The position numbers were made by a program, and so were the translations under genes. The notes beneath the pieces were generated by a model. That model did not search any database and was not told where the DNA came from. It saw only the letters and a program-made list of their open reading frames with translations. Positions 1 through 55,420 of a DNA stretch of 64,000 nucleotides are shown here, piece after piece. Positions within the stretch are counted from its first letter, which is position 1. Each line of letters begins with the position of its first letter. The DNA comes from Branchiostoma floridae (lineage: Eukaryota > Chordata > Leptocardii > Amphioxiformes > Branchiostomatidae): contig NC_049979.1 of assembly GCF_000003815.2 (NCBI RefSeq), forward strand, positions 15,658,275 through 15,722,274. The letters run 5' to 3'.

Positions 1-3000
1 GCAAAGAAAACATGGAAATTTGAGTACGTTGTAATTGTAATTGTAAAACACGTCACGTCGACTCAACAACATCTTTTGTAGTGTGTAACACATGTTTAAT
101 AGTATGCATAGTTGTATCTTTGCGGCTGTGACTGTGTACAGGCACATGAATTAAGTGTTCTCATCAAGGTCCTTGGTCTCACATACCAGTGCTCTGATCT
201 CGGCCGACTATAATCTTATATGCGTTTATATATGGTGCTAACCGGAGACCAGCTATCCAAAACATGTTCCATCCTTCGCGACTTGATTGAATGTCAAAAA
301 TTAACAATTTATCTTCGCGGTCCCTTGTGTCTTGTGGAATAATAGCGCAATTATTACAATACGATGTACATTACTCGGTGATTGTGTAAAAATAGGGCAT
401 TCAGTAAACTTACGATATTCCTCTTCTAACATCTGCTTGGCTATGTGTTAAATGTATGTGTGAATCCTACTTCTGTGTTTCGGCGTGTGTCTGCTATCAT
501 ACCTGTCATTGGTTTACCAATTTACCACGTACTCTCACGTATTCTTCATCACAGGATATGGAGATATTCTTCACGATGTATCTCATATCTCATAAATTGT
601 GGTGTGATTGAATATTGATACATTTTGTCTCTGGCTAGCTATGCATTGGTTTTCTATCGTCAATAGACTCATTTCTCGCTTTTCTTGGAAACTGCCTTTA
701 GAACTGTTCCTGTAATTCGCCCGGTTCTATTTTATCACCCGCTCACCATTCTTTCTCAGTGCCAAGCAGATATTGGGCTGCAGCATCAACGTCATCGACT
801 ATTAAAAGTTGGTGGTGCCCTGTATGTTTGTTTGATGATGTGTATATGCCATTATATTAGTCTACGCATTACTGACTAAAAGACTAAAAGCTGGTGTAAT
901 TATTTTGTGTACATTTGCAGTACGCAAATGAGACTACGTGTGCGTAGAGTGTAGCAGACCGTGTAGAGAAATATGCAATCTTCCAAGTTAAAATATACCC
1001 ACGTGCTTCGTGTTTACAGCTCCCAGACACGTACAGACAAGGCATGGCATGCTGGGGCATGAATGTTGGGGGGAGATTGCACCGGTAGCCGTCTTGAGTT
1101 TATTCTAGCATGACAAACTATGTCATGATGAGTTCAGTCCTCAAGGAGAACTGTCAACATGTTACTGTACCGCAGTGTTTGTTTGTTTGTTTGTACGTTT
1201 TGTGTGTAAATGTTTGTGTGATTATTAAGTTTGTATGTCTTTATCAATAAGAATCATTGTGTCATCTTTTTTTTCTATGATGGTGACTGACTAGGCTGTT
1301 CCCTCTGCCAAGATGGTTCGTCCCGACCCACAAATCAATGCAGTATTAATTCAAAGCAAACCCTAGTTCAGTTGGAATCACCCGCTGTATTCCTCTTACC
1401 TTGCAGCATTATTTCAGCAATGTCGCTGTAGCTGGGCAGAGACACCAGAATCAATAATCTCCCTTTTTCTCCAGAACCGTGAGTTAGAATTATGAGATTT
1501 ATGAACTTCCTTTCCGCTGAAAGGTTCGGCAGGCTGGAATTTTTTAGACGATGAAGATGGATTGTCCGTCAGTCCTACTGAAAGGCTGGGAGACCTTCAA
1601 AAGATCGGAATAATGGAGAGACATGGAGTTTGAGGTAAAACGAACGAATTGCGGAGTAAGCGGGGTGCCGGGCGGCGAGGAAATTATTTGCCAGCTGCTC
1701 ATCCCAGTTTTTACATGGAGGCAGGAGGCGACAGCATTAGAGAGCTGTATTGTAACCAGCCAAGGAGGTTGAATTCAACCTCCTTGTAACCAGCCCAACT
1801 TTTGCCTTCACAGTTAAATGACGGCGTCAAAACAACATTTACTTAACGTCCAGGCTTTCACTGCCTTGTCTGTTGTAGTTCTTGTGTAGGGTGAAAGTGA
1901 GAGTGGGTGCGCAACCCGAACTTTGAGGACCAAGAATCGACACGTTTCTTATATCAGTGTATGCAGCAAAGTGTAACCTGCGGCAGTCAGAAAGCTGACT
2001 TGCATGTTGACCTCTAAATCGTCGCAAGACATGTTGTCGGTGAGGATGACGTGGCATCTTTTTTTCAGTTCGATGTTGCGATGTCATTCGTCCGGTCTGC
2101 TGGCTTGACAAGCACAGATCATGACTGGAATCACTGTGTATATCTCGACAAAATGGAGGTCAAGATTATGTATGACCCATGCTGACAAGGCCATGAATGT
2201 AAGGTCGTCTTCACTAGCTGTCAGATTAAAATACCTAACGTTACATCATTTTCGTGGTATCAGATAACAGCCATAGTTAGTAATTGTCCCTCGATTGTCA
2301 CAACGGGTCGTTTCATTTTCACATAGAGGGGCGTACTCTGAGACCCTACCTTCTCCGTTCGGACTCGTTATTTTCAAAATAGTGGATTTCTTTCCTCCAG
2401 TACACTATCTTCTTGACGTTTATGCCCGCCCATTCAGTTAAAATCCAAAATAAACCACATTCCTTGTTGTTTGATTTCCAAGGCTCTGTAATAGAATAGC
2501 CCAGATCACTGCAACAGAAAAAATATGACTCACGACCGCCGATATTTTTAGCTGGTGTCGTTGTGTAAACAAAAGACGTATCCACTGGGCTGTTTTAAGA
2601 AGGAGGAAGCAAAGAAAACGAATTTATGTATTTAATCAGTAACAAACGACCTCCTATGAGAAACTTTGGCCAGCGTCAGATATATTGGATTTGTGATAAT
2701 TGCTCTGAAATGAAACTTTTAAGTAAGTGATTAAGGTTGTTTTACTGTTGATCGATATCAAGTCACAAGTCTGTTATGTTAGTGCTTTCTGTTTGTAATG
2801 TAGAAGCGTTAGCTCCAGATCACACGTTGTTATCATTAGTCCGATCACTGGCTAGAATTTGATTACGCTGTGGTGCAGAGGTGATAACGCTATCTCTGTT
2901 TAATAGTCATTGCTGATCTTCAACCGGACTGAGAGCTTTTCCTGTCTGCACGCTTGTATGAAAAAGATTCCACTTGGTTTGATAAATCTACAGATAATAC

Positions 3001-3099
3001 AATGACCAGTGAGGACCTAATCATTCTTTGAACAATTTCACGGAATTTTCGTCATCCCGTTCCAATTGACATCTTGGATTGTGAACAAAAGTAGTTTGA
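1..3099. other. Upstream intergenic DNA, no gene seen
   Basis: AT-rich sequence with only short, unconserved open frames on both strands and no exon bounded by plausible splice signals. It contains a TTTG-type microsatellite near 1170-1200 and a short palindromic insertion at 1753-1794, listed separately. The T-rich texture of the first 1.3 kb could be the 3' UTR of an upstream gene, but no clear AATAAA signal supports this. Confidence 0.5.
1753..1794. repeat. 26-bp palindromic insertion with 8-bp target duplication
   Basis: A perfect palindrome at 1761-1786 has arms CAAGGAGGTT around a GAATTC centre. It is flanked on both sides by the direct repeat TAACCAGC (1753-1760 and 1787-1794). An inverted repeat with an 8-bp duplication is the mark of a cut-and-paste insertion, and 8 bp is typical of hAT elements. 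Related insertions occur at 11493-11538, 30880-30915 and 55393-55420. Confidence 0.8.
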
Positions 3100-3503
3100 C
3101 AGAGATGGACCGACATGAGGTTGTATGGTTGTCCGGGGAACGGGACAGTGCCTGGCGGTTCTAGGTTACCCGTGTGCTCGGTGCCCCGTCCACGCCTGGC
3201 GACCGTCACATGACCCAGCGGTAGATAGTTGGTGGCACACGTCAGTTGGTCGCCTGGGCGGAAAGACGGGCGGTGGTCCAGCAACTTACCACAAAGGTCA
3301 AAGTTCGCAAGCGGGGGTTGGATGAAAGTCCGAGGTTCAGCAGCGTGGGGTTTCAATGCTTTGTTCCTCACCCAGTTTTTATTTTCACCTGGCGAAAGGT
3401 GTGGCCAGGTTGCTCCGGTGAGACCGCTTTGTCATCTGAAGCCCTGTCGTCATCCGTTGTGACGTCAGCGCCTGGGTTCGCGGGTCTCGCCAGCCCAAAC
3501 AAG
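3100..3503 (+). promoter_or_regulatory. CpG-rich promoter region of the BAHD1-like gene
   Basis: GC content and CpG density rise sharply here compared with the flanks. A full CRE octamer TGACGTCA lies at 3460-3467. The presumed start codon sits in an AAGATGGCG context (3501-3509), which is both a good translation-start context and a YY1-like element common at CpG-island promoters. No TATA box is evident. The transcription start cannot be placed more precisely from sequence. Confidence 0.5.
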
Positions 3504-6500
3504 ATGGCGTCGGACGTTAGGAACGTTCCTACGCGCGTACTACAATGTGGGATAGAGGGCGATCTGCCGGAGGTGAGCCTTGTCCTGGTTGAATGTTGAT
3601 GCCGAAGTGATGGCAGTGTGCCTGTGGCCTTGGCCGCATTGTGTTTTATGTGTGCTAGAACTGCGTTGCGTCAGGTAACGAGGCGAGCTGATGTGCGTGT
3701 CCCACCATTGACCAAGCGACCAGTTAGTTAGTCCCTTGTGTAAGGAGGCAGATGGTGCTGGATACCGGTACAATGTGCACAGTGTGCATGCCTGGCGTAA
3801 TCGTGCGGTAAACAAGGTTTACTGCTGTTTAGGTAACTTGCAGTCGTTGTGGTTGTTTTGTAGATAAGGTGGGTATGTGTTGTTGTCTTGGCAGCACGAT
3901 TTTAGAATCGAGGGGGTTGGACCGGAAGGTCGATTGGATGGGAGGGACCTCTCATTCTGTGAACGACCCTCCCCCTCTCTGCGTAACTGTACGTTACCGC
4001 TACCATTAACAACGACGACATATGTTTTTATGTATCACGTATACGTTGTTTTCCGCGTTGTTTATGATACTGGTTTTATTGATGTGCGCAGCTCCCATAG
4101 CGTCCAAAGTTAGAGTGCCCATGACCCCGTTTCGTGACCCACTATTATGATTAACTGTGTCAGTGAAAGAGCAAAAACGCCCCCAGTTCCAATCACCATT
4201 GAACCGTTCTGCTTTCGCCGTTAGACTATGCTTTATGTATCTGCCCGGATATTCTAAGCAAGGAAAGGGTGTTTAAGGAATTCTGTAGTACGTCAGTAAG
4301 AGAAAGTGTTTTAGGAAGGAAAACAGGAATCTCAGGAGGGGCATGAATAACGATAGGTACCCAGGTGTGAATGGAAAGAACGAATGAGAGAGAGAGTGAG
4401 AGAAAAGGCCGACGTGTCCCGTTTGTGTTCAACTGTTTTACACGTGCGAATTTGTATTTGTAAATTGACATGAAGTAGACGTCACTTAAACCGCTATTTG
4501 TTCATGTGTGGTCAAATTAGGCCGTGTGCTTGGGGATTACGGTTCCTGCTGAATAAACCGGAACCGAAAAATGTGCCCGATCTCCCTTCCCATGTAACCT
4601 TTGCCCCGCCAGTAGTTCGATCTCCCCAGGCCGCCCATTGGTTAGAAGGATTTATGTCGCTTGTTCTGTTTTGTACCTGTGCAATTTGCTCTGGTACAGT
4701 TTAGTTCTAGTTACGAGGTTTCGTGACGTTACCTCTCTGTGTTTGTTTGCTTTACTGTGAGGGTTGGTCGTGTATTCTTGAAAACCAACCTCGTGTAACA
4801 ATAGTACACAAGTGATCAATAAATCTCTCACTTGTGTTGTTTAGAGTACTATCAACGCCCTGTTGACCAACTGGCGATAGTGGTCACCTGTATCGTAGGC
4901 CGTGGCAAATAGCTAGTCTATTGTGTACCTGTGGGATATACACTATTAGACCTTAAACATGCATATCAGGGATATGTTTCGTCCGATATGCGATACCATT
5001 CCATTGGAACGATCGGGAAGACACATTCGTACACGTCACGTTCACAAAACATAGGGATGTCACATGACACTAAAACGTTTCACCATTGGTCACTGGAAAC
5101 GGTTACACGATTTCCCGCCATGAAAAACAACGACCGAGTCACACCTTGTCATTATCACATTTTGAAATTACTGGTTACGGTATTATGTCTGTTGAAAAGG
5201 CGGGGTTCGACATAGGGACAATTTCATGGTGATCTCCAAGCAGATGTTGGGAGAGAATGTAGATCGTAACGTAGTCTGTCTGTCTCAGATTATAATGCAG
5301 CCTGAGTATCACCCTGCTTTAGTTTACCGGGGCTCCCATACTCCTTGGTGAATCCTTGGTGAGGGGGAAACATGGGAGCCCCGGTAAACTAACCAGGCTA
5401 ACTAGCATGTATTTGGCTCCGCAGAATACGTTACGTTCTTTTTACTTCCATCATCTGCTGGAGATTTAATTCATTTATGTCAACAATTTCTAGATCGTTG
5501 ATCGTATATTTGATTGAAGGAAATGGTTCTTGAGAGCGACAACACAGTACTTTCACTAACGCAATAATGACGACAAGCATAGCGGTTGAGTGGTTGGAAT
5601 GTCGGCAAATTAGCCCTTCCCCTTGGACGAGCCCTGAGAAGTAAACAGGAAGGATTCTACTGGCGTAGAGGCACTTCCTGCCTGGATGGGCGGAGGTAGT
5701 CTTCGAGCAGATGTTAAGATGGTGAAACGTAATGATTTTTACTGTCCTGATTTTTTTCTTCTGATATCCAACTATCATTAGCATTCAACGCGAGCTCCCT
5801 TGGTAGCACAAGTCAAGTTGTTCTCCAACCAGATTTTCGGATGGGAAATCGCAGCGTTTGTATAAGGGGTGCGGGTCAGAAGAAGACGGGATAGCCAGAA
5901 AACGTTACGATCCCCCTTTCAAGATGTACTTCGCCTTTGGGACTAAAACAAAACATCGTGTTCCTGTCGACAGTGTAACAGGACGTAAAGAAGAGAAAGG
6001 GCAGTGCCATGATGTTGAACAAAAAGGAAGCTAAGATAAGATAAGAAATACCGGAGAAATAGAGAAAATTTTGCATTGTTGACGGTGTTAGATTTGCCGT
6101 CTCACACGCCAGTGTCGCTAAAGGCAAGCAGACCTAAAGCCAGCAGAACGGTGAACTATGTTTGAACCCTTCCTCACCCTTTCTAGTGGTACGAGACAAA
6201 CCTATAGAAATTACATAGCTGTTGTGTCGGGATAGCAGAAGATCGCCTGGTCGTGTTTTATAGGACACTTCTATTTGGGCTGCTATTGAACCTCTCTTAG
6301 ACGATTTCATAATTTAGATTCAAAAGCCTTTGCCATTTGTGCTAATAAATATCCAAGGGGCAACACAGCATTCTACTAGGCGTGGCCAACTTATACTATT
6401 TTCATAGTTACAATCTGAAAGACACTCCATTGTTGCAGTCGATGTTTACATAAAAACCGATAGTCAAAATAGTACTGAAGTTCCTGAAGAGGAAGGTGTA

Positions 6501-9500: not shown

Positions 9501-12500
9501 TTAATAAAGCGATTCCGCCGTGGGAGCCTCCACGTACGCAAATATTGGCACGTCACTGATGTACCAGATTAATACATTGGTCACAGTTACTGTATACACG
9601 GACTGCACCCAGGGAAGCGGCCAGCACACGCATATCATGAAAAGTGTCATCTACTCTTATTCGTACCGTACTACGGTAGAAAATTTTTGTTCAAATGAAG
9701 GACAGTAAACGTGAAAATGTTTCGAACATTTCGGTATTTCATTTTTCAAGAAACGGAAACGTTATCAATAATATCAAGCGCAACTGACTGGATGCAAAAT
9801 ACGAAAACAAGGAATCTAAAATGTCGTATGTGTTTGTAACCTGTTGACGCCCTGACCTTTTTTTTCGGCGTTAGCATGCACTAGAAGGTAAAAGCTAGAA
9901 GTTAGAATCCCTGGAAATTGAATTAGTCCAGCTGTAGGTGGGGAATCCAAGTCCTAGCAATGCACACGTATTGTTAAGCGTCGTGCCAGAGAGGAGAAAA
10001 CATCGTTATCAATGATCACGACACCGAACATCAAGTAGACAACCCAACAATGGTTAGTGGAGCCTGATAACATTCATATCAACAGGCAGTTCTACAGGAA
10101 AATTATGAGTACAAGAATAACATAATGAAAATCTTGTCACAAAATGTGAGCAGCAATAAGACTGAGACGGAAAACACATTGACGTTACCAAGACCGTGCA
10201 CGACACATCAGTAACCTGTCCATGGATTCTCCTGTCTAGTACAAACACATTAACCGAAAGTGAATTGAATGGCATATAGTGACGGAGCGGCCCCAGGTGC
10301 TGATATCCACCTACAAACGTACGTTTGGTATCTGCAATTTGTACGGGATTACCGAGTAACAGAGAACGGACTTAATGTAATCACAATCACAGACCCACAG
10401 GAGACAGTGCGGATAAAGGGCGCCCAGGTACATTCATTCATCCGGACGCTATTTAACCAATAGAACCTGAGTTATGCAACAGTGTACATGTGTAGTTCGT
10501 TTGTACTTTGTTGTAGATTTACAGACAAACACGAATTGGTTGCGCAATCAGAGGTCATAGTACGTGAAATATATTAAAAGAAAACGACACAAACACTATA
10601 GTCAAACCTGTAACTTTTTAACATAATAATTGTGTAGCCTGTAACACAATTTGATTATTTTGTACTCATAATTTCCATGTACAACTGTCTGTTGATATGA
10701 ATGTTAATTGACCTAAAGGTAACAGGTACTAAAATATCAAAAGCTTTATTCTAAATCTCTGTTAATCGTTTTTGGCATCATATAGGATCACCTAAACGAC
10801 TAATCAAGATCATGTCATGTCCGAACATACAATGTACAGATCGCCCCTTATACAATTACGAACTAACAAGTCGCCCACATACAAAAACGTCCCGAGAACA
10901 ATACAGTAGCAGGTAACCGCTTAGTGAACGGTGTAGCCCTCGTGTTGTAATGGATCTGTGGCGTGAACAGCATATGTAAACACACACACAACAAAGCCTG
11001 CGCGCTGCGAGGGGTGAAGGTCAGCCGTTGCTTAGTAAAACTCTGGGCAGCGCTAAATCAGACAGCTATCATGGTGTGAGGCTTCAGAGTTGTCACGTGG
11101 ATCACATGGCCAACCGTACTATGGCGGGAACAAGACTTTCGGAATCAGCCGATCGCTGTTTAAGCTGATCTTATATATTATTAAGTTGCCCTTTTTTCAG
11201 CCTGAAGAATATGAAATGTGGACGGCACACCGCAAGCGAACAGCGTAAGATAACTTCGTTGTCGGTTCTGACGACTTTGTACGATCGACTTTGTACGGAG
11301 TCCAGATAGAGATGTTGTTAGATCTGCTACTTACTCTCCAAGCAGAGGTTGGTGGGAAAAATCGTGACCTTTTCCTTTCATAAGTTTTTTTTTTTCGACC
11401 GGGTGGTGTCATACTCCACCAACTACGCATGTAAAAGCCCTGTGTTCATACGATACGGAAATACGTGTATTGGGTAGGATGGTGATGACTCACTAGGATC
11501 AAGGAGCTTTTATCCTGATAAAAGCTCCTTGCTAGGATCTAATTTCTGAAAACGCCAGAAAACTCGGACCATCTGTTTCCACATCACTGCTAATTACGCA
11601 TGCCGAAACAGAGAAATATGACGATAATGGCAATGTGATGCAACTCGGTACTGTCCACGTATGTAACACACACACTTAGCTATTATAGACACGTACCCCC
11701 ACAAAACTGACAACTATGTCAAACAACTCATGGTATAGCAAGCGACAAGGTTTATCTGTTCCTAACAGGCTAAGCTAAGCCATATAATTTGAAGAATGAA
11801 AAGAGGTTCTCTCCTTCCAAACTGTGACGGACTGACTGTAGGAAATTCGAAGAGGTTTATCATAAACCGGATAGTCGCATTTGTGTGCTGTCGCAGTCTC
11901 CATCGATGTAGAGTGCTACCGCAAACCGTGCCATAATTTGTCGTAAAATGGTTACGCCGTGGTGCAAATCAAAACACATTTATGGTCGCACGGCGCGAAA
12001 CCTATTGCACCACGTGCAGTTCATTGGGCCTGATTTACTACCGATTGGGAATGGTTGAATGGGAAACTGATAATCGTTCCGACAAGTTGGACACGTTCCA
12101 ATCGGGCCGGCGGCCCAGCCATGCACGCTACCCGCGCCAGGACAGAAGCCTGCTAATATTGATTACTGCAGGTCAGGAGGGAGAAGGTACCACCAAGATA
12201 GCCACACTGGAACAGTCATAGTAGTCTGATGGGAGTCGGTAGACAAAATATGAAACGCTGTCTAATTGTTTGAGATCGCGAACGTTCACTGATCCTCGTG
12301 CCGTGGAGTTGCTGGAGATATAAATTGATAACGATTTGTCTATGCCGGAGTGCCTGTGCCTTGCTGTGAAGAATAACCACTATGTATATTTCCAGGTGCA
12401 GGGGAAGCCCGTACGGCGGGTGTGTTACCGGGGGATGTGCCGGGAGGAGGACCTGATACAGGAGAGGGACACGGTCCTGCTCAAGTCGGGGCCGCGCAAG

Positions 12501-27210: not shown

Positions 27211-27472
27211 AGTGGTCAATTATGTCCAGGTCCTGTGTGGCCCGTTGACGGAAGTGGTCAATTATACGCAAAATCCAAACACTCAGGGCCCCAACGAATA
27301 TCGAAACAGTCTATATAAAGACACGAAAATATGAAAAAATGGAGCGTTTAATACCAGTCCTATGATCTTTTAAACCGAACGTTTTTAGGTGGAGACACAG
27401 CCCGGTGTGATTCTTTTAGTTCATGTTTACCAGAGTCGTTGGAGAATGCCCCACTGAATGACCAGCAGCATG

Positions 27473-29654: not shown

Positions 29655-29661
29655 CGTATAC

Positions 29662-30330: not shown

Positions 30331-30879
30331 CGGTTACCCTGGGGAAATATGTCCCCATTCACCCGTAATGCATTCGATGGCCAAAAAGTCGAAAAACATG
30401 TTTTAAATTTGACCACAGTGAGACTAGTTGACTTTTAGTTGAGGGGACATTAATCCCGAGTACCTTTGGGGATATGTTAACCTGGAATCCCTACAAATGC
30501 CAAACTAATGAGCCTTTTTCGTTCACTGAACGTTCATATCTTTTTAATGCTGTATTACGAGATATGTCTTCAAGATGAAAAAAAGGGTGGGCATCGGAAG
30601 ATCTAAGGGCACCGAAAATCTAATCTGCCCGGGAAAATGGGCCCCCTTCTTTCAATCACTACAAAAAGTATGTTTGTTCTTTAAACATTCAAGTTTAAGA
30701 TGTGCGTTACATTGAAAAACAGCTTTCAATGTTGAAATATAGCATATAATAGTCTTTGTTGCTGTGGGCTTTCGTACTTTTAGGCCACGCCCACCGGCCT
30801 CAAATTGGACCAATGGCAGGAGGGGGACTGATTTTCCTGGGGAGACACATATTCCTGGAACACATGCTGCTGGTCATTC

Positions 30880-30915
30880 AGTGGGGCAAGGAGGTTTCAA
30901 CCTCCTTGAGTGGGG
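30880..30915. repeat. 22-bp palindromic insertion with 7-8-bp duplication and an empty site
   Basis: Arms CAAGGAGGTT and AACCTCCTTG surround a 2-bp centre (30887-30908). AGTGGGG is repeated directly at 30880-30886 and 30909-30915. The mirrored position in the left foldback arm (27448-27455, complementary sequence GCCCCACT) has one copy of the target and no palindrome. This is an internal empty-site control that proves an insertion with target duplication. Confidence 0.85.
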
Positions 30916-31169
30916 CATTCTCCAACGATTCTGGTAAACATGAACTAAAAGAATCACACCGGGCTGTGTCTCCACCTAAAAACGTTCGGTTTAAAAGATC
31001 ATAGGACTGGTATTAAACGCTCCAATTTTTTCATATTTTCGTGTCTTTATATAACGGTTAGACTGTTTCGATATTCGTTTGGGCCCTGAGTGTTTGGATT
31101 TGCGTATAATTGACCACTTCCGTCAACGGGCCACACAGGACCTGGACATAATTGACCACTTCCGTAACG

Positions 31170-31700
31170 TTTGACGAAAAGATCGCAGCTCGAGATAGCG
31201 GACACGCAACTGGCTTGAAGTTGAACTGGTTTCCGTAACGTAAGGGTTGACTAAAAAATCGCAGCTCGAGATAGCGGACAGGCTTCCGTAACGTAAGGGT
31301 TGACGAAAACATCGCAGCTCGAGATAGCGGACAGGCTTCCGTAACGTAAGGGTTGACAAAAAAAGCGCAGCTCGAGATAGTGGACAGGCTTCCGTAACGT
31401 AAGGGTTGACAAAAAAATCGCAGCTCGAGATAGCGGACAGGCTTCCGTAACGTAAGGGTTGACTAAAATATCGCAGCTCGAGATAGCGGACAGGCTTCCG
31501 TAACGTAAGGGTTGACAAAAAAATCGCAGCTCGAGATAGCGGACAGGCTTCCGTAACGTAAGGGTTGACTAAAACATCGCAGCTCGAGATAGCGGACAGG
31601 CTTCCGTAACGTAAGGGTTCACTAAAACATCGCAGCTCGAGATAGCGGACAGGCTTCCGTAACGTAAGGGTTGACCAAAAAAAAATCGCAGCTCGAGATA
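31170..31700. repeat. Outer minisatellite, right arm (inverted)
   Basis: About nine to ten units of 52-55 bp, the reverse complement of the array at 26838-27210, with the core GGCTTCCGTAACGTAAGGGT. It has more copies than the left arm. Confidence 0.85.
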
Positions 31701-31929
31701 GCGGGCAAGCAACGGGCCATGAACGACACCGAGCAACCTGTTAGTCCTCTGTACTGAAATTCCCAAGGGAGACATGAATGAACCCCTGGTGTAGATTTTA
31801 CTCGTAGCCACTGAATGCAGACTGTTATGAAAACACAATGATGTATTTAAATCGATAACCCGTTGGTTTGTAAGCTTATTTGTAAGTTTTTGAAATGCCC
31901 CATGTTTCAGAATGTCCAATATTTTGCCA

Positions 31930-40150: not shown

Positions 40151-40153
40151 ACC

Positions 40154-40542: not shown

Positions 40543-43500
40543 ATGCTGGACAGTTTTTCTTCTGTACCTCCTTCAAATATAGCAGAGCCGTTTTTCATCA
40601 GGAACAGTGAAGTTACAGGGCCTGACATGGATCTAGACTTCGCGTACCCCCTGGAGGACAGATACAAGTGCCTCCTGTGTGGCCGATGTCTTCGGAACCC
40701 CCGGCAGTCTCTTGAATGTGGTCATCGGTTCTGTGAAAGCTGCCTAACAGAAGAATTACGGTAAGAATTTTGACCTATCTCAAGTACTTTTGATATGTAT
40801 CGTTTATGCCCGATGATACCGTACATGTATTGCTTCCGGTATTGGCGGCCGTTCCGACACTCCACTATAGCGTTTACCCATTAAACATTTAACCCACTAA
40901 AGCAATACAAAGATTTAAATGTTGTTGTTTTCTTTGAACTACAGTAAAGATGCACCGAGATGTCCAGTGGACAAACAGGCACTTTCTGCAAATGGGGTAA
41001 GTAGAAATCGTGACGACTTAAATAAAATACTCTTATTTTTCTTGTACGTAACTGTTACGTATGATCGCCTGTTGATATTAGGCTCATGTAGAGGTGAAGC
41101 AAGAATATAAGCCCCTTGGGTGAAGTTAGCTTTGCTTCCAAGTGATTAGAGAAAAGACAATATAAGGCGTGAAATAACACCAACACCCATGACAAATATA
41201 AAACTTCTAGAAATAAAAAAAAAGCTGCATTCACTGACATGGCATAAATCGCTATATATGGTGCAACAAAGATTTATCCTCGAACCTCTTCTGATTTTGA
41301 TTTACTAGTATATAAATGATCTAACATATCTATCCCCAAACCTTTCACTCTTTAAATTGTTGATATCCCAAACTTGTTTATATTGCCCGACGAAAACTTC
41401 AATACTTTGGTAACTAGTCTACCTTGAATGAAGAACTAGAGAAAATAAGTACTAGTACCTTGTTCAAAACAACGAATTTGTCTTTCAATGTTGATCAAAC
41501 AAATCTGATAATTTTTGCAAGCGCTAGAAACGAAAAAAAAAACATATGAAAAATGCTAAAATACAAACATGTATTTATGTGTGGTATTGACATCCACCCG
41601 CTCTCACATTTATGATTACAGACAGCTTTCCTAACTCTGAACTCTTTGGGATTATAGGTATTTCCAGACAAGGGTGCGGAAAGGGAGATTGGACAGCTCG
41701 TAGTCAACTGTGTCAATAAAAAAGCAGGGTGTGAAATACAAGCATCAATCAAGGAACTCCAGGTACGTCTCACAGATTTCTCTTCACAAATCCAACACTA
41801 TTTCAATAAAGCCTGCTAAATAAAGCATAGCGCGGACAAAAGTTGCATGTGACAAACTGTAAAATCAGCAAATATTCTATCATAATGTTTATAAAGCTTA
41901 ATGTGAAGCCAGAGCGATCTATAGCAAAGTTATGAATATGTACAAAAACCCCATGGCCATGCTTACGGTTTTTTACAAATGCTTTTGAAATGGGCATTTT
42001 CACTTATTCTTATATTTGTCTTTGGAATGAATTTTCATGTATATTATATTCATATCACAACAGGAACATCTAGAAGAATGCAAATATGCCACAATAGAGT
42101 GCATACACAAGTCTAAGGGCTGCAACGTGCAAGTACCAAGATGTCACCTAGCGGAACATCTGGAAAATGAATGTCAGTTCCGACAAGAGCCGTGCAAGTT
42201 CTGTCAGGAGTTAATACCTCTGGCACAGACGGAGGTGAGGATTTGATTCGTTTGTACCAACATGTTGATTATTAAATCAAGCAGTTTTATATGATATGTT
42301 TTCTCACTATGCACATTATACATCGCTGATGTAATTTCGAACTAATAAGAAAATTATGTTCAACGTCACTGTCACAGTTGCGATTGTTTGGGAGACGTGT
42401 CCTTGCACGTGCAGTTGAATGAAGTGTTTATTTTCTCCAGGACCACACAAAGCAGTGTCCGAAGGCCCCAAGTTCTTGTCCAAATGGCTGCGAGTTGACA
42501 GGAGTGACACGAGAAGAGGTAGAAACACGTCAATTTTCACATTTCCTATGCATCACCAAAATGAGGCTTTAATCAGAATTATACTTTAATTCATATTTTC
42601 GTTGTCTAAATTGGAGTCCTTAACATCTTTTACAGGTAGAGAAACACCTCCAGGATGAATGCCCCCAGTCAGAAGCCAACTGCAGATTCAACTCCTACGG
42701 ATGTACATTTAAGGTAAATTTACTTCACCCCAACTATAAAATGTGAATCAGTATCGAGGCCGTGGGAATAAATATTACTCGTAATGCTATTGTAACGTTA
42801 TTGATATTGTATGTTATCTGTAAATACATGTAGAAGCAATTGTATTAATCTTATTAGATAAAACAAAATTTTTATTGTAGTGGTTGTCAATACTGTCTTG
42901 CATAATAGCTTCTTTATCCAAATTTTTCACAGCAGAAAGCGATATTATACATTACATCATCCTTGTATACGAACATATGATCATAATCATATTGACATAA
43001 TGATGATATTTTTATCAGGGCCCGAGGAGTCATGTCAGTGAGCATGAATCTCTGTCCATGGCAGAGCACCTACTTATGGTAACCAGCAACCTGGCTAACC
43101 TGGAGCTCAGTCTGTCTGAATCACGTCGAGAGCTACAGGAAGTCTCTAACCAGAGAGACCTGTTTAAGAACACAGTCACACAGCAAGCAAGCGAGATCAC
43201 GTCACTGAAACAAAAATCTGAAAAGCAAGATGGAAAAATTGCATCACTTCAGGTAACATGAATGTTCCTAGTTTATCATTAATCAAAAGTTAATTCCAGG
43301 GCAAAGTAACAATTGGTCTAAATGAATATTTATTTATTCATTCATTTTTTAATGAATATTAAAATAACAAGGTCATCATGCTGCTAGATTAAATATATTA
43401 GAATATAAAATTTATTTACCCATTGTAAATCTGTTTGTCTCTTACAGAAAATGGTAGCCAACCAAACAGACAAACTTATGAAGTTTGAACAAGATCTGGA

Positions 43501-44442
43501 GACAACTGCAAAGAAGGAAGAAGTGGAGGGTCAAAAGAGGGACCTGGTGGCCGTGAAGGAAACAGTTAAAAGAACAGAAAACAGACTGACCAAGTTGGAG
43601 ACCAGGGGATCAGGAGGAGGGGGGGTGTTTTCAGGTGCAACAGGTATGTGTTGTCTTGTAAGAAATGTTTGATTTTCCCCCTACAGTTGAGAGAAAAAAC
43701 TATACAGGATCTAGTTGTACCGAATGAAAAATATAGAATTCTCATATAAGCAAATGCCAAGCAAATCTACATATCATTAAATTTTTGGTACATGTTTTGT
43801 ATTGCACTGTAGAGTAGAATTTCGTCTACTTGCATATGTATTAATGTTAACTGGTTCTGATGTCCCACAGGAGAAGTAGAAACACAACTTGCATCTCAAG
43901 ACAGACAACTCGGCATCCACGATGTCCGACTGGCTGAGATGGACCTCCGCTTCCAGATCCTGGAGACAGCCAGCTTTGATGGAACCCTTCTGTGGAAGAT
44001 CAAGGACTACACCAGGAGAAAGCACGACGCAACCACAGGCAGAACTTTGTCTCTGTACAGTCAGCCCTTCTATACCAGTAGAAATGGTTATAAGATGTGT
44101 GCTAGGGTGTACCTGAATGGGGATGGTATGGGGAAGGGTACACACATGTCCCTGTTCTTTGTAGTCATGAGAGGAGACTATGATGCCCTGTTGCCCTGGC
44201 CCTTCAGACAGAAAGTAACCCTGATGCTTCTAGACCAGGATCAGGGCAGGCGCCACCTGTCGGATACGTTCCGCCCTGACCCGACCAGCAGCAGCTTCAA
44301 GCGCCCCACCAGCGACATGAACATTGCTTCAGGCTGCCCGCTGTTCGTGTCACAGGCTGTAGTGGAGGGGAGCCCTTATCTTAAGGACGACACGATTTTT
44401 ATCAAGGTTATCGTTGAGACATCGGACTTGGTTGGACCATAG
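40543..44442 (+). CDS. TRAF3-like adaptor / RING E3 ligase, tandem copy A (9 coding exons)
   Basis: Exons 40543-40760, 40945-40996, 41658-41762, 42064-42234, 42441-42518, 42636-42713, 43019-43252, 43448-43643 and 43871-44442 give 567 codons plus TAG, the size of TRAF3 (568). The RING spans residues 43-82 (CLLC, CGHRFC, then CPVD: a C3HC3D type ending in Asp). TRAF-type zinc fingers fill exons 3-6 (about 91-234). Exons 7-8 form a coiled coil (235-377). The TRAF-C/MATH domain is about 410-562, with YKMCARVYLNGDGMGKGTH, LPWPFRQKV and MNIASGCPLF, closest to TRAF3. TRAFs trimerise beneath TNF and Toll/IL-1 receptors; TRAF3 limits non-canonical NF-kB and promotes interferon signalling. The first ATG was used; Met29 is an alternative. 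The last exon encodes the same protein as that of copy B. Confidence 0.92.
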
Positions 44443-45537: not shown

Positions 45538-47595
45538 TCAGCAGCTTGAGAATAGACCCAGAGGTTTTTCCCACCCAACTGTATTTCTTGCACAATATAT
45601 AACATATGAAGTGCATACTGCACACTTTCCTAACTTGCGTTTCAGCTGGCGGACTTCGCGTTCCTTGTGGCTTACAACACACAGGGATTTTAACTTCGAG
45701 CAGTTCTCGCTGTTAACCCACCCCCTACTACCAATTTCAATAGTGACAAGAGTAGCTTTGTAGGTGCTGTGCATGTCAATTTCATTTAATAAGTCTTCAT
45801 ACTTTGCCCTTTTCCTGTCCTCGGCACTACGGGCGTTTTGTTCGAAGGGTACAGTGAGTTCAATAAGAGTCAGTGTTTGTTTGACCGGGTCTTGTATGGT
45901 TATGTCTGGGACAAGCGACGTGGGTAGAATGTCCGGTGGAATGGTGGAATGTGTGCCTCCTGTCACTGAATCTGCGCTCAAGTCGCACCTGATGATGACC
46001 TGTTGTCCCGACTCGGAATGCCACTCCTTGAGTACGCTGTTGTGACGCCAGGTGTACCGACTGTCCTTCAAGGCAACCGGACAAGAGTTCAGAACATGCC
46101 TCAGTGTTTGGTGACCTTGGCATAGAGGGCAGTTAGACGACAGCACTTTCCCCCATCGGACCAAGTTGTCGCGTGTAGGCAGCCAATTGACCATGCCGCT
46201 CAGGGCAAACTCAAAGACGCCTCGAGGGCTGTTGCACAGTGAGCTCCTCCATCTTGTGTCAGACTGCTCGACTTCAACTAGTTCCACCCAGGTACCCTGT
46301 ACTGTAAGCGTTCTGCAGTGTTCCTCTATCTTCTTGTCTTCTGACAGTCGAAGATGGGCTTTTGCCTTCTGACACAGCTTTTCCTTAGTTTTCCGGGGGG
46401 GTTCTTGAATGCCTTGTGGGTTGGGACTAGACATTGCCGTAAGTGTTTCTGTGACAAGGGTGTTACAATCCAAGTTTCCTGTGGACTTGCGGCTTAATGT
46501 TCCCTCCCTTTCTAGTTTTGCTTCTAGGGCATTCCTGACGGTTGAGTCACCTACAGTCACAGCTGACGCGATGACTGTAGCATGTTCCTGGAGATAGATC
46601 TGCTCTACCGAGGTAAGTCCTAGGCCCTGGCTGTGGTACAGGAGTCCTGGGTTTGTTGACCTCTTCATCCCAGCCCATTTTTTCAGGTACTGAGTAACGC
46701 TGCTGTTCAGTTTTTGCAGGTGCGAGAGTGTGACGTCATGGACTGACAGTAGGAACCTGATAGCACCTTGTACGTATGTTCTGTAAATCTCACATTTGTA
46801 CTCTCCTCTTATAGGTGATGCATCTATGTTCATGATGATCCCATTCTGTTCATCTGACCCAATGATTGATTCCCTCAGGATATCAGCGACCGGACCCGAG
46901 GAGCCGCTAGCTGAGACGTAACCACCAAGGAATTTGAAGGGGGTTGTGATGATGTTGTCCAACGGGTGATTTCCAATACAGAAGGAAACATTCTTTGTAG
47001 AGCCACCACAGATACTAAGTGTTTTGCATTTCTTAGGTTTCAGATGCAAATGAATGGCACGCAGATTTCTGTCCAATGTATTTAAAATACGTTGCAGTGA
47101 TCTTGACCTGCATATGGTCAGGGCAAGGTCGTCGGCAAATGCAAATGTCGCGTGTGTCTTGTTCTTTAGTTTGTATCCATGTGCTGCCTCGTTTCGGAGG
47201 TATTCCAATGGCAGGTTGATGACAGGCAAGAAGACTGCGACAGACAGTGTGTCCCCCTGGAATGTGCCAACGTTAAGCTGGAATGGATTAGATGAGAACT
47301 CTGTGCAACTCACTTGGGCTGTGAGATTGTTGTAAAATACCTTCACATAGTTGCAGATATGCTGTGGTATGCGGTATCGCTGTAGTGCCAGGTGGATTAA
47401 ATCATGAGGGACCGATCCAAAAGCATTCTGCAGGTCAAGCCAAGCTACATGCACAGTTTTTGATTGTGCCCTAGCATCCCTGACGATCTCATTCAGGACC
47501 AGTGAGTGCTCGACACACCCCGACACTCCCTCCAGGAATCCCTTTTGTACCTCCTTGTCGATGATGTCATTCTTGACAAGAAACTCAATCATACG
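45538..47595 (-). mobile_element. 5'-truncated R2-like LINE (restriction-like endonuclease type)
   Basis: The similarity to non-LTR retrotransposons begins abruptly near 47595, inside the reverse transcriptase, and runs to the stop at 45538. The N-terminal DNA-binding region and the first reverse-transcriptase blocks are absent, as expected from incomplete target-primed reverse transcription. No target duplication was identified. It is inserted between TRAF3-like copies A and B in the opposite orientation. Confidence 0.8.
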
Positions 47596-47667
47596 ACCAC
47601 CGACTATATACGTATGTCTACAGTCGATAAGAAGTTCTAGGCGACCTCTGTATAGGCGAGCAACCAA
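45538..47667 (-). CDS. Partial LINE reverse transcriptase with CCHC and endonuclease region
   Basis: A single open frame of 709 codons; the first 24 or so are flanking genomic sequence. Reverse-transcriptase landmarks in order: a KGF..GVSGCVEH block, VAWLDLQNAFGSVPHDL (catalytic Asp), TFQGDTLS, FAFADDLALT (the catalytic Asp pair) and FKFLGGYV. The C-terminal zinc motif CPLC...H....C has the CX2CX7HX4C spacing of R2-type elements. After it come a PD...E core (LVPDITI, LIELTVPFE) and a KYEDL segment, as in restriction-like endonucleases. The frame has no stop or shift over about 2 kb, so the insertion is young or the frame is still constrained. It cannot be autonomous because its 5' part is missing. 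The clade within R2/NeSL/HERO-type elements is not resolved. Confidence 0.85.
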   Translation of the reverse strand: MVARLYRGRLELLIDCRHTYIVGGRMIEFLVKNDIIDKEVQKGFLEGVSGCVEHSLVLNEIVRDARAQSKTVHVAWLDLQNAFGSVPHDLIHLALQRYRIPQHICNYVKVFYNNLTAQVSCTEFSSNPFQLNVGTFQGDTLSVAVFLPVINLPLEYLRNEAAHGYKLKNKTHATFAFADDLALTICRSRSLQRILNTLDRNLRAIHLHLKPKKCKTLSICGGSTKNVSFCIGNHPLDNIITTPFKFLGGYVSASGSSGPVADILRESIIGSDEQNGIIMNIDASPIRGEYKCEIYRTYVQGAIRFLLSVHDVTLSHLQKLNSSVTQYLKKWAGMKRSTNPGLLYHSQGLGLTSVEQIYLQEHATVIASAVTVGDSTVRNALEAKLEREGTLSRKSTGNLDCNTLVTETLTAMSSPNPQGIQEPPRKTKEKLCQKAKAHLRLSEDKKIEEHCRTLTVQGTWVELVEVEQSDTRWRSSLCNSPRGVFEFALSGMVNWLPTRDNLVRWGKVLSSNCPLCQGHQTLRHVLNSCPVALKDSRYTWRHNSVLKEWHSESGQQVIIRCDLSADSVTGGTHSTIPPDILPTSLVPDITIQDPVKQTLTLIELTVPFEQNARSAEDRKRAKYEDLLNEIDMHSTYKATLVTIEIGSRGWVNSENCSKLKSLCVVSHKEREVRQLKRKLGKCAVCTSYVIYCARNTVGWEKPLGLFSSC

Positions 47668-48783
47668 TAGGTGAGCTCAGGGTGATGAAAATTATTATAA
47701 CGGTGCTGCAGATACCATCAGTATATGACAAATGTACATCTATCTACATTGTTATGTACGACATTGGTAATAATTGTGTATGTTGTGTATTATGTTTGTT
47801 TCATTAAACAAACTGTGAAACAGTGAATGAATTGTACTACATATTGCAGCTGTAGTCTCTGACCTTTGTTGCTCGTCAATGTGTCTCTTTCATTTCATGT
47901 GCAAATTTTATGAAATCCGTCCAATTTCACATTGCCCTATAATCCCCAATGATGTAACATCTAAACCTCGATGTTATCAGTGTTGGCATGAATTCACACT
48001 TGTAACCCGATTAAAATCCGTCTGTTAATGAACCCTGTCCTATTTACAGATTGACATTGGAGCTAACGCACAACGACGTGACATACGTAACGTTTGTCAT
48101 GGGATTTGCGTCACATTTGACCGTACGGCCAATAAACATACACACAGATCGAAAAATCTAGACGCGCATAATACTGTCCATATGCATAAAGCTTCTCGTG
48201 ACTAATTGTTTCAATAACACGCGCACGGGCTCATGAATCCTTCCTGAATGTTATAGAATATTATCTGGATCCAAACCTGATTAGCGCACTGTAAAATATA
48301 ATTCAGTAAGAGTTCTTACAGAACTAACGTTACATTCAGTATTTGAGAAACGTCGAGCTAAGGAGTTTTCATCATCGGGGTAACCTTTATAATCATTTTC
48401 CATGATTAACATCGTTATGGATGTATCATTTTGAGATACAATGAAATGCGTTTTACCAATTGATTGAATGGACCATGATTCTGCTTACTATTTGCAATCA
48501 AGATTAACGTTATTACTATTATAGTGAATTCCGTGACAACACGCGTGTACAATGCCGCGTAGCATAAGAACTTCTAAGCGAATGCGTACTTCCATAAATT
48601 AAGCGAGGTAAGAATTTGAAAAGGGGAAATGTTTTCCCCCGAGAGTGGTAGAAACGTTTATAAAACACGATGCCACATTTTATTCAAGTCATCATGGAAT
48701 AGCCCAGGTTGTTCGAGAAAACCTTTGACCCTGATCCATGATAACTTGAGAGGTGGAACGCCGTGATTGGTGCCGCACCTTGA
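47668..48783. other. Spacer between the LINE and TRAF3-like B
   Basis: AT-rich, no exon or RNA gene recognised. A short mirrored GGGGAAATGTTTTCCCCC occurs at about 48624-48641. The final 150 bp lead into the presumed promoter of copy B. Confidence 0.4.
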
Positions 48784-49363: not shown

Positions 49364-52300
49364 ATGTATACAGATCTACAGTACGTCTTTCCACTTGATG
49401 ATCGCTACAAATGCCCGATTTGTAGCTCTGTATTAGACGCACCCCGCCAGACGTCGTGTGGGCACCGCTTCTGTGACAGGTGCTTACAGCAAGCCTTCAG
49501 GTGAGAACAAAATTCAAAATTGATATAAAAAGTATGAAAGGGAGTACTTTTACACAGTAATATGGTGAGCTTCTTTCAAACAATCTAATCGTTTGATACG
49601 TCACAAATCGTCTCCTTGTCATTTGACCATCGACTGAGATGTAAACACAAGATCTCGAGGGAATCAGAGAAGTTACAAAGTGCCTCGTGATGCTCACCCC
49701 AGCATGACTTGTTTGTCCCCTGGCCAGCATGACAAAGTTTGTCCAGTAGTCCCATGACTGACCACATATCGATATCGTTACAGGAAGGGTGATGCGCACT
49801 GTCCTATTGATAAAGAAGTCCTTTCGGCAAACGAAGTAAGTATACCGATTTTCAAATTATACTTACTTAAAATACGTAATGGTTAAGATTTTTCTTTAAT
49901 CTATGCAACATGTGGAATATGTGATTAATGTTCATGCCTAAATTGCCCTTCCTCCTTTTGTTCAGGTTTTCCGAGACCGGTGTGCTGAGAAAGAGATTCT
50001 CCAACTTGTTATCTATTGTCCAAACAGAGAGTTTGGCTGTAAAGAACAACTTCCACTGAAAGAATTAGAGGTAACAATATTGTCCTTTTGTCTATGTAAT
50101 GGAATTTTTGGAAGTGTTTCTTATTTACAGTATTGCAATGTGGAAATGCAGATGTTCATCGGATGTTCTGCTTTCCTCCACACAGTCTCACCTACAGGAG
50201 TGTAAGTACACCCGAGTGGAATGTATTCACAAAGACCAAGGCTGCGATGCCCTCTTCCCAAGACATCAGCTAGCACAGCACTTGGAAAAGGAGTGCAACT
50301 TCAGACAGGTGTCATGCAAGTTTTGCAGCGAGGGAATTCCACTGGCTCTGATGCAGGTATGCTTATTTTTTTGCCACTTTCTGCATTTCAGAGTGAAGTA
50401 TTTAAATATTGTGTTCACGCACTATAAAACTATAATCGGGCTATCACAAAGATCAGAAACATCCAAGCAGGATATAGTTAGGTTCCTGTAGCCCGATTCT
50501 TCACCGACCGAGACCCGAAATATGCCTTTTTTTTCTATCAAGACAGATTGGAAAGAATCGTCTTTGACTAAAACCGCGTTATGTTTTGCCACTGTAGGAC
50601 CACCTGGCGCAGTGTCCTAGAGCGATGGCGTCCTGTCCAAACGGATGTGGCTTAACAGACGTCACGAGGGAACAGGTACATCTTACTTTTCTTACAAAAA
50701 CTTTTGCAGACTGATCCATAAAGCCCAGTGTAAACTATGATTTTTCTTAATGGTAGAAACTGTCTAAGGCGACGTATATATGGTCACCTACTGTGTCAGC
50801 ACATATCAAACAAATTTATGATCACATGAAATTGCACACGATGAGTATATTTACGAAACTATTATTACCCACAGGTGGATCAACATCTCCTTGAGGATTG
50901 TCCTCTTGTTGAGGTGGAGTGCAGCTACAGTGGCAGCGGGTGTAGTTTCAAGGTAAATGGCTGTATACATTGCCTCTATAAATGACATACTTTTCTTATG
51001 TCAAATCGTTTTTATCATCTTCTGACATCCTTACAACATGCTGTCTACACAATTACCATGCGCCTGACTTATTTGGTAAACTCTACAGGGCCAGCGAGGC
51101 CAGCTGGAGGAGCATAATGCCCTGTCCATGGCCGAACATATGGGTATGCTCACTGCAAGTCTCGCCCGCTTGGAGCTCAGCTATTCAGAGTCCAGAAGGG
51201 AGCTGCAAGAAGTTTCCAACCAGAGAGACCTTCTGCAGAACACTGTCGAACAGCAGGTCACTGAGATCACATCGCTGAAGCAAAAGGTCGACAAGCAGGA
51301 CACAAAGATAGGGGCTTTACAGGTACGTTATCCGGACAGCTGTTATTGATTTGATTTGCCATTATGAATAAATTCAACTTTTATGGAAACCTTATTTTAG
51401 CAGTATCTAATCACATTCTATTGGTCCTGGCAGAAAATGGTGGCCAACCAAACTGACAAACTTACAAAGTTTGAAGAAGATCTGACTTCAGCCGCCAAAA
51501 AGGTTGATGTGGAGGACCAGAAGAAGGACCTAGTCGCAGTGAAAGAGACAATGAAGATAACGGAGAACAGACTGACAATGTTAGAGACCAGAGGGTCGGG
51601 AGGAGGTGGACTGTTTTCAGGTGTAGCAGGTATGAGACAGAAAGTTTACATTTGATCTCCATTGGTTATATGCTCCTGAGCAAAGTAAGATTGATCAGTC
51701 TAAATTATCAGATTTAGTCACATCTTTTGAGAAAAGCTGTACTCATTGTTTCCATGATATCTGCCTTGTCATAGGAACGTTTATATTGACTTGGAAAGAA
51801 TTTGTGACAATTAATATTCCTGCCCTTTCGTGCCACAGGTGAAGTCGAGACACAACTTGCATCTCAAGACAGACAACTCGGCATCCACGATGTCCGGCTG
51901 GCTGAGATGGACCTCCGCTTCCAGATCCTGGAGACAGCCAGCTTTGATGGTACCCTGCTGTGGAAGATCAAGGACTACACCAGGAGGAAGCACGACGCTA
52001 CCACAGGCAGAACTTTGTCCCTGTATAGCCAGCCCTTCTATACCAGTAGAAATGGCTATAAGATGTGTGCTAGGGTGTACCTGAATGGGGATGGTATGGG
52101 GAAGGGTACGCACATGTCCCTGTTCTTTGTAGTCATGAGAGGAGACTATGATGCCCTGCTGCCCTGGCCCTTCAGACAGAAAGTAACCCTGATGCTGCTA
52201 GACCAGGATCAGGGCAGGCGCCACCTGTCGGACACGTTCCGCCCTGACCCGACCAGCAGCAGCTTCAAGCGCCCTACCAGCGACATGAACATCGCTTCAG

Positions 52301-52410
52301 GCTGCCCGCTGTTTGTGTCACAGGCTGTGGTGGAGGGGAGCCCTTATCTCAAGGATGACACGATTTTTATCAAAGTTATTGTTGAGACATCGGACTTGGT
52401 TGGTCCATAG
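49364..52410 (+). CDS. TRAF3-like adaptor / RING E3 ligase, tandem copy B (9 coding exons)
   Basis: Exons 49364-49500, 49784-49835, 49966-50070, 50186-50356, 50598-50675, 50875-50952, 51089-51322, 51434-51629 and 51839-52410 give 540 codons plus TAG. Exons 2-9 have exactly the same lengths and phases as in copy A. The RING runs from CPIC through CGHRFC to CPID, again with Asp as last ligand. Zinc fingers, coiled coil and MATH follow as in TRAF3. The N-terminus before the RING is short. An acceptor-like CAG at 49336-49338 means a further 5' exon may exist and the true start may lie upstream. The MATH-exon protein from MDLRF to the end (167 residues) is identical to copy A, while the coiled coil differs at many positions. 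Confidence 0.9.
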
Positions 52411-54762: not shown

Positions 54763-54962
54763 TACTGTAAATGCATTTAAGTTCGCGGGGATTTAATTTC
54801 GCGGTAGCGGGAAAAATGACTTTTCGCGGTGGATTTAATTTCGCGGTAACACCATCGACTGCAGTCTAATACCTTAATAGAATAATGTTCGCGGTGGATT
54901 TAAGTGGTCGCCGCGAAAACCGCGAACATTAATCCACCGCGAACATTTCTGCATTTACAGTA
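54763..54962. mobile_element. 200-bp MITE with CGCG-rich arms
   Basis: Termini TACTGTAAATGCA and its complement bound a 200-bp element whose arms continue as AAGTTCGCGG and GTTCGCGGTGGATTTAA, repeated several times internally. A truncated copy starts at 57833. Repeats of this TACTGTAAATGCA...TTCGCGG type are widespread in marine invertebrate genomes, as I recall. No coding capacity. Confidence 0.75.
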
Positions 54963-55392
54963 CCCTTGGGGTCGAGGTTTTCGATCTTTTTTTTTACAGT
55001 GAAGCTTCACAACATCGTCATTGGCATCGATACAAATAGTGTAATACAATAAAATCGCGACGATAATTGCGAGCACGTAGAGGAATGAGGTCATAAAATG
55101 CAACACATTTCGCAACATGCTGTGATCTTTGCTGTGATCAAATGCATTGGCGTGTGGCGACTGGTGCGGTCACAGAACGAACAATATAATAAAAAGTCAA
55201 GGGAGAATTATTGAATATCTAACGTTACATTCCCTTACATCGAGAATGAGGAAGATAAAAAGTTGAGTCATTCCTAACTTTCGGCGAAAACAACTTCAAC
55301 TTCCCCTGACGCAGGTGATTCCCCAACGTCACACTCCGGTCCCCGCCAGATGAAGTCCGCCAAGACCCCCTTTCACCCACCACTAGCATTAC

Positions 55393-55420
55393 ATGTTACC
55401 AAGGAGGTTCTTGATGTTAC
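55393..55420. repeat. 14-bp CAAGGAGGTTCTTG insertion with 7-bp duplication
   Basis: CAAGGAGGTTCTTG (55400-55413) is flanked by direct ATGTTAC (55393-55399 and 55414-55420). It keeps the CAAGGAGGTT end of the palindromic insertions at 1761 and 30887 but only CTTG of the opposite end, so it may be a further-reduced copy or an excision remnant. Confidence 0.6.

What the first reader, a model, noticed from the sequence alone, without database searches (positions are those of the whole stretch)
1753..55420. A family of tiny palindromic insertions (14-32 bp) with 7-8-bp target duplications
Four sites (1753-1794, 11493-11538, 30880-30915, 55393-55420) hold a palindrome or near-palindrome starting CAAGGAG, bounded by direct repeats TAACCAGC, CTAGGAT, AGTGGGG and ATGTTAC. 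They look like elements reduced to fused terminal repeats. Target length suggests hAT. How such small units insert, or whether they are relics of larger copies after internal deletion, is unclear.
Basis: partly seen in the sequence, partly recalled or inferred. Interest (0 to 1): 0.8.

Follow-up and report, generated by a model that had tools for sequence, protein, structure and literature searches.

The report
Scars of departed P-type jumping genes
The tiny palindromes are most likely scars left when jumping genes of the fruit-fly P-element kind cut themselves out; this genome keeps thousands of such palindromes, and in the one family counted there are about fifteen for each surviving jumping gene found.

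Summary
In detail: all four sites are as described, and a fifth lies at 41093-41125. They are best read as excision footprints of P-superfamily transposons, not as tiny elements or hAT. Genome-wide, CAAGGAG-N(0-20)-CTCCTTG occurs 2,572 times, a control pattern 37 times. Of 36 listed sites with flanks, 23 have an exact 7- or 8-bp direct repeat and 6 a 7-bp repeat with one mismatch. Parents of the 11500-site type were found: 1.19-kb elements with the same ends and 7-bp duplications, and an 8.44-kb pair of the same ends that encloses, by coordinates, a P-type transposase frame. Footprint arms of this type stop matching the parent end at nucleotide 17, the stagger of P transposase; Drosophila junctions look alike (PMC2895639 passages). 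Two-armed scars of this type (443+142) outnumber paired elements (38) about 15 to 1. An empty paralogous site exists for 30880. Against: parents of the other end types were not found, some arms exceed 17 nt, two P-transposase models found nothing, and haplotypes could not be compared.

The parts
1753..1794 (.). Footprint 1: TSD TAACCAGC (1753-1760 and 1787-1794) around a 26-bp palindrome 1761-1786 (13 + 13 nt of CAAGGAGGTTGAA)
11493..11538 (.). Footprint 2 (type B): TSD CTAGGAT around 11500-11531 = 15 nt of one end + 17 nt of the other end of the 1.19-kb element
30880..30915 (.). Footprint 3: TSD AGTGGGG around 30887-30908 = 10 + 12 nt
55393..55420 (.). Footprint 4: TSD ATGTTAC around 55400-55413 = 10 + 4 nt (strongly trimmed on one side)
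41093..41125 (.). Footprint 5 (not in the finding): TSD GGTGAAG around 41100-41118 = 4 + 15 nt of a related end CAAGGGGCTTATATT
27449..27455 (+). Empty target (single CCCCACT) in the inverted paralogous copy of the region around footprint 3; joined flanks of 30880-30915 match it at 63 of 68 positions, with 17 identical bases on the far side before the copies diverge

Best explanation
Each palindrome is the scar of one transposition event. A P-superfamily DNA transposon, often a ~1.2-kb non-autonomous copy driven in trans, inserted and duplicated 7 (rarely 8) bp. Later the transposase cut it out, cleaving one strand at the element boundary and the other 17 nt inside each terminal inverted repeat. 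The flanks kept the target duplication plus a 17-nt 3' tail of each end. The two tails have the same sequence, so after fill-in, trimming, short microhomology or added filler the joined product is a near-palindrome of up to about 34 bp, somewhat longer with filler. Shown: anatomy, target duplication, genome-wide excess, parent elements with the same ends and 7-bp duplications (one end type), a P-type transposase frame between one pair of such ends, arms ending at nt 17 in that type, one empty paralogous site. Inferred: the cut itself, the repair pathway, that the transposase is or was active, and that the other end types work alike.
For: Genome-wide excess 2,572 vs 37 and 1,128 vs 57 for 35-64 bp. 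Exact 7-bp direct repeats at 22 of 36 sites, 8-bp at 1, one mismatch at 6. Four intact elements of 1,187-1,190 bp start with CAAGGAGCTTTTATCA and have 7-bp duplications CACACAC (inside a CA run), ATAAAAC, GCCTACC, GTATACC. End searches give 38 inverted pairs: 32 of 1,178-1,208 bp, and 903, 1371, 1547, 2152, 4111 and 8442 bp. The 8,442-bp pair (C19:10308832-10317273) encloses the best PF21787 match (E 2.2e-20, 767-aa open frame). Of 62 type-B arms of at least 15 nt among 103 distinct listed strings, 10 end at 15 and 24 at 16; in the 28 that reach 17, further agreement with the parent is 9/11/4/2/1/1 arms for +0/+1/+2/+3/+4/+10 nt, against 7.0/15.8/3.5/1.3/0.3/0 from random letters. Window site 2 is 15+17. 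17-nt stagger: PMC7776569 (passages). Drosophila excision junctions with duplication, up to 17 nt of each end, microhomology or templated filler: PMC2895639 (passages with parts of its tables). Galileo (P superfamily) makes 7-bp, rarely 8-bp, duplications, consensus GTANTAC or GTATTAC (PMC4168063 passages). Empty paralogous site for footprint 3.
Against: Parents of the CAAGGAGGTT type (window sites 1, 3, 4) and of the CAAGGGG type (site 5) were not identified; the one search for them did not complete. PF12017 and PF21788 found nothing in this genome; their controls rang nowhere either, so this is not proof of absence; the PF21787 control also rang in 0 of 14 genomes. 7 of 36 sites have no target duplication. 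Palindromes of 35-39 bp are common, so there is no sharp stop at 34 over all types. A minority of arms exceed 17 nt: a 51-mer of 34+17, a 41-mer of 20+21, and CAAGGAGCTTTTATATCAG-type palindromes with arms of about 19-23 nt whose parent is unknown. Of 20 short fetches, 8 gave a simple scar, 1 was an element end, 5 share the flank CTTCCAC and so were multiplied inside another repeat, 6 showed no clear second duplication by my rule. Arm statistics use the first listed places, and the and 85 strings were chosen by long arms.
Confidence: 0.91

Rival explanations
1. Tiny mobile units: the 14-40 bp palindromes are themselves recognised and moved by the transposase in trans.
For: Thousands of copies, most examined ones with own target duplications; some interiors recur, such as a 35-mer seen five times in either orientation among 50 listed, and 15 of 50 listed type-B footprints are 31 bp long (most of these known by length only).
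Against: Interiors differ from site to site as different trims of the same ends; type-B arms stop at the 17-nt cut position, which a mobile unit would not need; recurring junctions are expected where microhomology guides joining. P elements carry internal transposase-binding sites (PMC7776569 passages) for which such units have no room.
Confidence: 0.04
2. Internal deletion relics: larger copies shrank by aborted gap repair rather than by excision and end joining.
For: A few long-armed cases (51-mer of 34+17) and elements of other sizes (903-4111 bp).
Against: Internal deletions should end at many depths; type-B arms stop at nt 15-17 and estimated counts per length drop about tenfold from 35-39 to 40-64 bp.
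Confidence: 0.06
3. hAT element remnants.
For: CAAGG fits the loose hAT end consensus (recalled).
Against: hAT cutting leaves hairpins on the flanks, not the element's ends (recalled); the target duplication is mostly 7 bp with GT...AC; the one large parent encloses a P-type transposase domain. No hAT model was searched.
Confidence: 0.01
4. Chance palindromes or replication slippage.
For: Small inverted repeats are common in any genome.
Against: 2,572 vs 37 control matches, type B 443 and 142 vs 0 and 0, shared end sequence, 7-bp direct repeats at most of the 36 sites examined.
Confidence: 0.005

Closest known systems
Drosophila P-element excision footprints (P{wa} repair junctions, PMC2895639, passages)
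   Same: Target duplication on both sides, up to 17 nt of each terminal repeat, near-palindromic join, microhomology and templated filler.
   Different: There made in laboratory crosses from one insertion with an 8-bp duplication; here natural scars by the thousand, of several end types, with mostly 7-bp duplications, probably in a chordate.
Galileo (P superfamily, Drosophila)
   Same: 7-bp (rarely 8-bp) target duplication with a palindromic GT...AC target (PMC4168063 passages).
   Different: Long internally repetitive ends (PMC3573991, abstract start in the listing). The word footprint has 0 occurrences in the two Galileo papers looked into.
Zebrafish Pdre2 / THAP9 element (PMC10983969, passages)
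   Same: P-type transposase, ends starting CA, excision shown in cells.
   Different: 8-bp duplications, end CATACCTGTCAAC, at least 50 related sequences reported.
Rice DNA-transposon excision survey (PMC4423477, passages)
   Same: Genome-wide reading of excision scars.
   Different: 94 putative excisions found by comparing two species, other superfamilies, mostly with deletions and/or filler; more insertions than excisions in nearly every row of its table.

Membership tests
P superfamily of DNA transposons (parent elements) | P-type transposase (TNP-like RNase H, PF21787) inside the element | tested here: met
   C19:10311853-10312299, E 2.2e-20, 767-aa open frame, between matching ends at C19:10308832 and 10317273. 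By coordinates only; sequence not read; the tool's 14 control genomes gave no match to this model.
P superfamily of DNA transposons (parent elements) | GTP-binding insertion domain PF21788 and HTH domain PF12017 | tested here: inconclusive
   No match in the genome, but control genomes rang nowhere.
P superfamily of DNA transposons (parent elements) | 7-8 bp target duplication | tested here: met
   Four of four fetched intact elements with 7 bp; 23 of 36 footprints with exact 7 or 8 bp.
P superfamily of DNA transposons (parent elements) | Terminal inverted repeats beginning CA (as in fly P and Pdre2) | tested here: met
   CAAGGAGCTTTTATCAG..., 27 identical bases at both ends of L038; alignments to both C19 ends begin at query base 1.
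P-type excision footprint | No more than about 17 nt of each terminal repeat retained | tested here: met
   Type B only: agreement beyond nt 17 is as random letters give; exceptions named in the Against line; other types untested for want of a parent.
P-type excision footprint | Site alternates with a full element and a bare target | tested here: inconclusive
   Bare target found in a paralogous copy for footprint 3; no allele with the full element could be examined.
hAT | 8-bp duplication | tested here: not met
   Exact 7 bp at 22 of 36 sites, 8 bp at 1.
hAT | hAT transposase in the parent | not tested
   No hAT model was searched; a P-type domain lies between the ends of the one large parent found.

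The most novel reading that the evidence does not exclude
Some of the palindromes are not end products: footprints that keep both 17-nt ends may still be bound, cut and inserted elsewhere, so that a 30-40 bp sequence would be among the smallest mobile DNAs, and part of the identical copies would be its offspring.
Probability: 0.04. Interest if true: 0.88.

Novelty: new member of a known kind. Interest (0 to 1): 0.62.

Why it matters
Excision scars of P-type transposons are known from fly crosses. Here one genome holds palindromes of this anatomy by the thousand, and each would record how one break was joined in the germ line. That makes two points testable: how often an excised element is lost rather than retained elsewhere (about 15 two-armed scars per paired element in type B, a rough figure), and which end-joining routes (blunt, microhomology, templated filler as with polymerase theta) this animal's germ line uses over long times. 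Repeat annotation built on full elements would probably not see such scars (inference), so transposon activity may be underestimated.

Tried and rejected
Considered the repeat at 56498 (CAAGGAGGTTTAACG...) as a full parent inside the window: its similar inverted ends extend beyond CAAGGAG and it did not appear in a scan for CA-ended elements of up to 6 kb with exact 7- or 8-bp duplications, so it was dropped. Looked for CAAGG-ended elements of 60-9000 bp with duplications in 304,282 bases: only a 73-bp double footprint in L031 came up. PF12017 and PF21788 searches: no match, controls silent. A sharp length cut-off at 34 bp over all types was expected and not found: lengths 35-39 are still common; filler and an end type two bases longer may explain part of it. 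The cleaner test is arm length against known parent ends. Parents of the CAAGGAGGTT type by inverted pairs of CAAGGAGGTTGAAAGAG: not completed. Nine literature searches: none of the listed titles or abstract starts describes cephalochordate P elements or a genome-wide set of P footprints; the library holds open-access papers only, and I looked into seven papers by passages.
Full report
What is there. The four sites exist exactly as written: TAACCAGC[26 bp]TAACCAGC, CTAGGAT[32]CTAGGAT, AGTGGGG[22]AGTGGGG, ATGTTAC[14]ATGTTAC. A motif-free scan for a 7-bp direct repeat around an inverted-ended insert also showed a fifth, GGTGAAG[19]GGTGAAG at 41093-41125, whose arms are 4 and 15 nt of a related end, CAAGGGGCTTATATT. 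All five interiors read as two pieces of one end sequence joined tail to tail, with unequal trimming: 13+13, 15+17, 10+12, 10+4, 4+15.

Not chance. In the window's own assembly (513,431,437 bases, 431 contigs) CAAGGAG-N(0-20)-CTCCTTG has 2,572 places and the backwards control 37; with 21-50 interior bases 1,128 and 57. The longer class includes an unrelated repeat: 4 of its 50 listed matches are 59-60 bp sequences starting CAAGGAGTATAGC. Of the 50 places listed I had flanks for 36: 22 exact 7-bp direct repeats, 1 exact 8-bp, 6 with one mismatch in 7, 7 without; cross-pairing the flanks gives 0 exact and 11 one-mismatch matches of 1,260. Over 37 duplications (28 of these sites, five from the window, four from intact elements) the commonest bases are G T T T A A C in turn, that is, a GT...AC target.

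The parents of one type. The 16-mer CAAGGAGCTTTTATCA (the type of the 11500 site, here type B) occurs 1,108 times, control 0. In that listing four inverted pairs lie 1,187-1,190 bp apart. They are closely alike elements (alignment) whose ends begin CAAGGAGCTTTTATCAG(G/A/T)A, with 27 identical bases at the two ends of L038, and have 7-bp duplications CACACAC (inside a CA run), ATAAAAC, GCCTACC, GTATACC. In L036 the longest stop-to-stop frame is 142 aa. Searching the genome with 128 bp of each end gave 40 left hits (48 candidates, 40 scored) and 40 right hits (41 candidates, 40 scored), which form 38 inverted pairs: 32 of 1,178-1,208 bp and single ones of 903, 1371, 1547, 2152, 4111 and 8442 bp. 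The 8,442-bp pair, C19:10308832-10317273, encloses C19:10311853-10312299, the best of three matches to PF21787, the P-transposase RNase H domain (E 2.2e-20), in a 767-aa frame without stops. Both end alignments begin at the first base of the query. So the largest retrieved pair is P-type and the 1.2-kb elements look like its non-autonomous partners. Two other P-transposase models, PF12017 and PF21788, matched nothing here, with silent controls.

The mechanism. P transposase makes 17-nt 3' extensions (PMC7776569 and PMC10983969, passages). After excision in Drosophila the flanks keep the 8-bp duplication and the 17-nt tails, and the tables of PMC2895639 (seen in part) show junctions built as duplication + end piece + microhomology or insert + end piece + duplication. 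The palindromes have this anatomy. The test: compare type-B arms with the parent ends beyond nt 17. Among 103 distinct strings (50 listed, 50, 8 of the 20 fetches, and site 2 of the window) 62 arms reach 15 nt: 10 end at 15, 24 at 16, and 28 reach 17; for those 28 the further agreement is 9, 11, 4, 2, 1, 1 arms at +0, +1, +2, +3, +4, +10 (counted to +10 at most), while random letters would give 7.0, 15.8, 3.5, 1.3, 0.3, 0. Thus agreement with the parent ends at nt 17. The and 71 strings were selected for long arms, which does not bear on what follows nt 17. Window site 2 is 15+17, L007 is 17+16, C1:4289481 is 7+17. Exceptions: a 51-mer of 34+17, a 41-mer of 20+21, and arms of about 19-23 nt in palindromes of a second type, CAAGGAGCTTTTATATCAG, whose parent I do not know. 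Over all types there is no sharp stop at 34 bp.

Numbers. Type-B palindromes with ten-letter arms: 443 of 20-34 bp and 142 of 35-64 bp, controls 0 and 0; the longer set includes the second type and a few overlapping matches. Scaled from 50 listed places each, counts per length peak at 31 bp and fall about tenfold from 35-39 to 40-64 bp. Against 38 paired elements that is about 15 scars per element; strongly one-sided scars such as L050, with only CTTG on one side, come on top. The element count is a lower bound and other elements may share the 17-nt end, so the ratio is rough. For the CAAGGAGGTT type, the commoner one in the listings, no parent was found.

History. Footprint 3 lies at the edge of an inverted duplication (26843-27461 against 31533-30903, 95.6%). 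Joining its flanks with one copy of the 7 bp matches the other copy at 63 of 68 positions, though beyond the site only 17 bases agree before the copies diverge. The sister copy is a bare target, so the scar was gained after the duplication (or the sister lost it without trace, less likely). Scars can stack: L019 about 4916-4975 appears to have one scar inside another and L031 about 3646-3732 two in a row sharing GTTGAG. Some multiplied inside other repeats: 5 of 20 short fetches share the flank CTTCCAC and similar inner sequence.

Where it belongs. P superfamily by transposase domain, ends and duplication, as far as tested; closest in duplication and target to Galileo (GTANTAC, PMC4168063 passages). 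hAT is not supported. Novelty: a new member of a known kind; what stands out is the number and preservation of scars. None of the titles or abstract starts listed by my nine searches, in an open-access library only, describes such a genome-wide set.

Noticed in passing
43861-44442, 50075-50491, 51808-52410, 61451-62056: TRAF/MATH gene pieces: three similar MATH-type frames, two of them 95.5% identical over 581 bp, and a TRAF zinc-finger frame; Pfam was run on the 61451 and 50075 frames only.
   Followed up: partly
45538-47676: 712-aa frame with reverse transcriptase (RVT_1; zf-RVT just under its cut-off): a retrotransposon.
   Followed up: no
28625-30373: Satellite of about 54-bp units (CCTAGGAAAATGTGTCCCCATTC...) arranged as an inverted pair of arrays.
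   Followed up: no
26780-27334 and 31058-31740: Minisatellite of about 53 bp in two inverted copies, open in more than one frame.
   Followed up: no
56490-58020: Longer repeat with imperfect inverted ends (TTAAAGGCGCCCAGAGCA; 56528-56565 and 57953-57990), apparently unrelated to the footprints.
   Followed up: partly
G000:C1:939227, 1650953, 4380295, 6761967: A dispersed 59-60 bp near-palindrome CAAGGAGTATAGC...GCTATACTCCTTG of unknown nature.
   Followed up: no
L040, L041, L042, L048, L055: A 17-nt type-B arm with constant flank CTTCCAC and similar inner sequence, apparently amplified inside another repeat.
   Followed up: no
G000:C11:17076605-17077051 and C6:14994104-14994325: Two further P-type transposase matches (678-aa frame; 123-aa frame) whose surroundings were not examined.
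   Followed up: no
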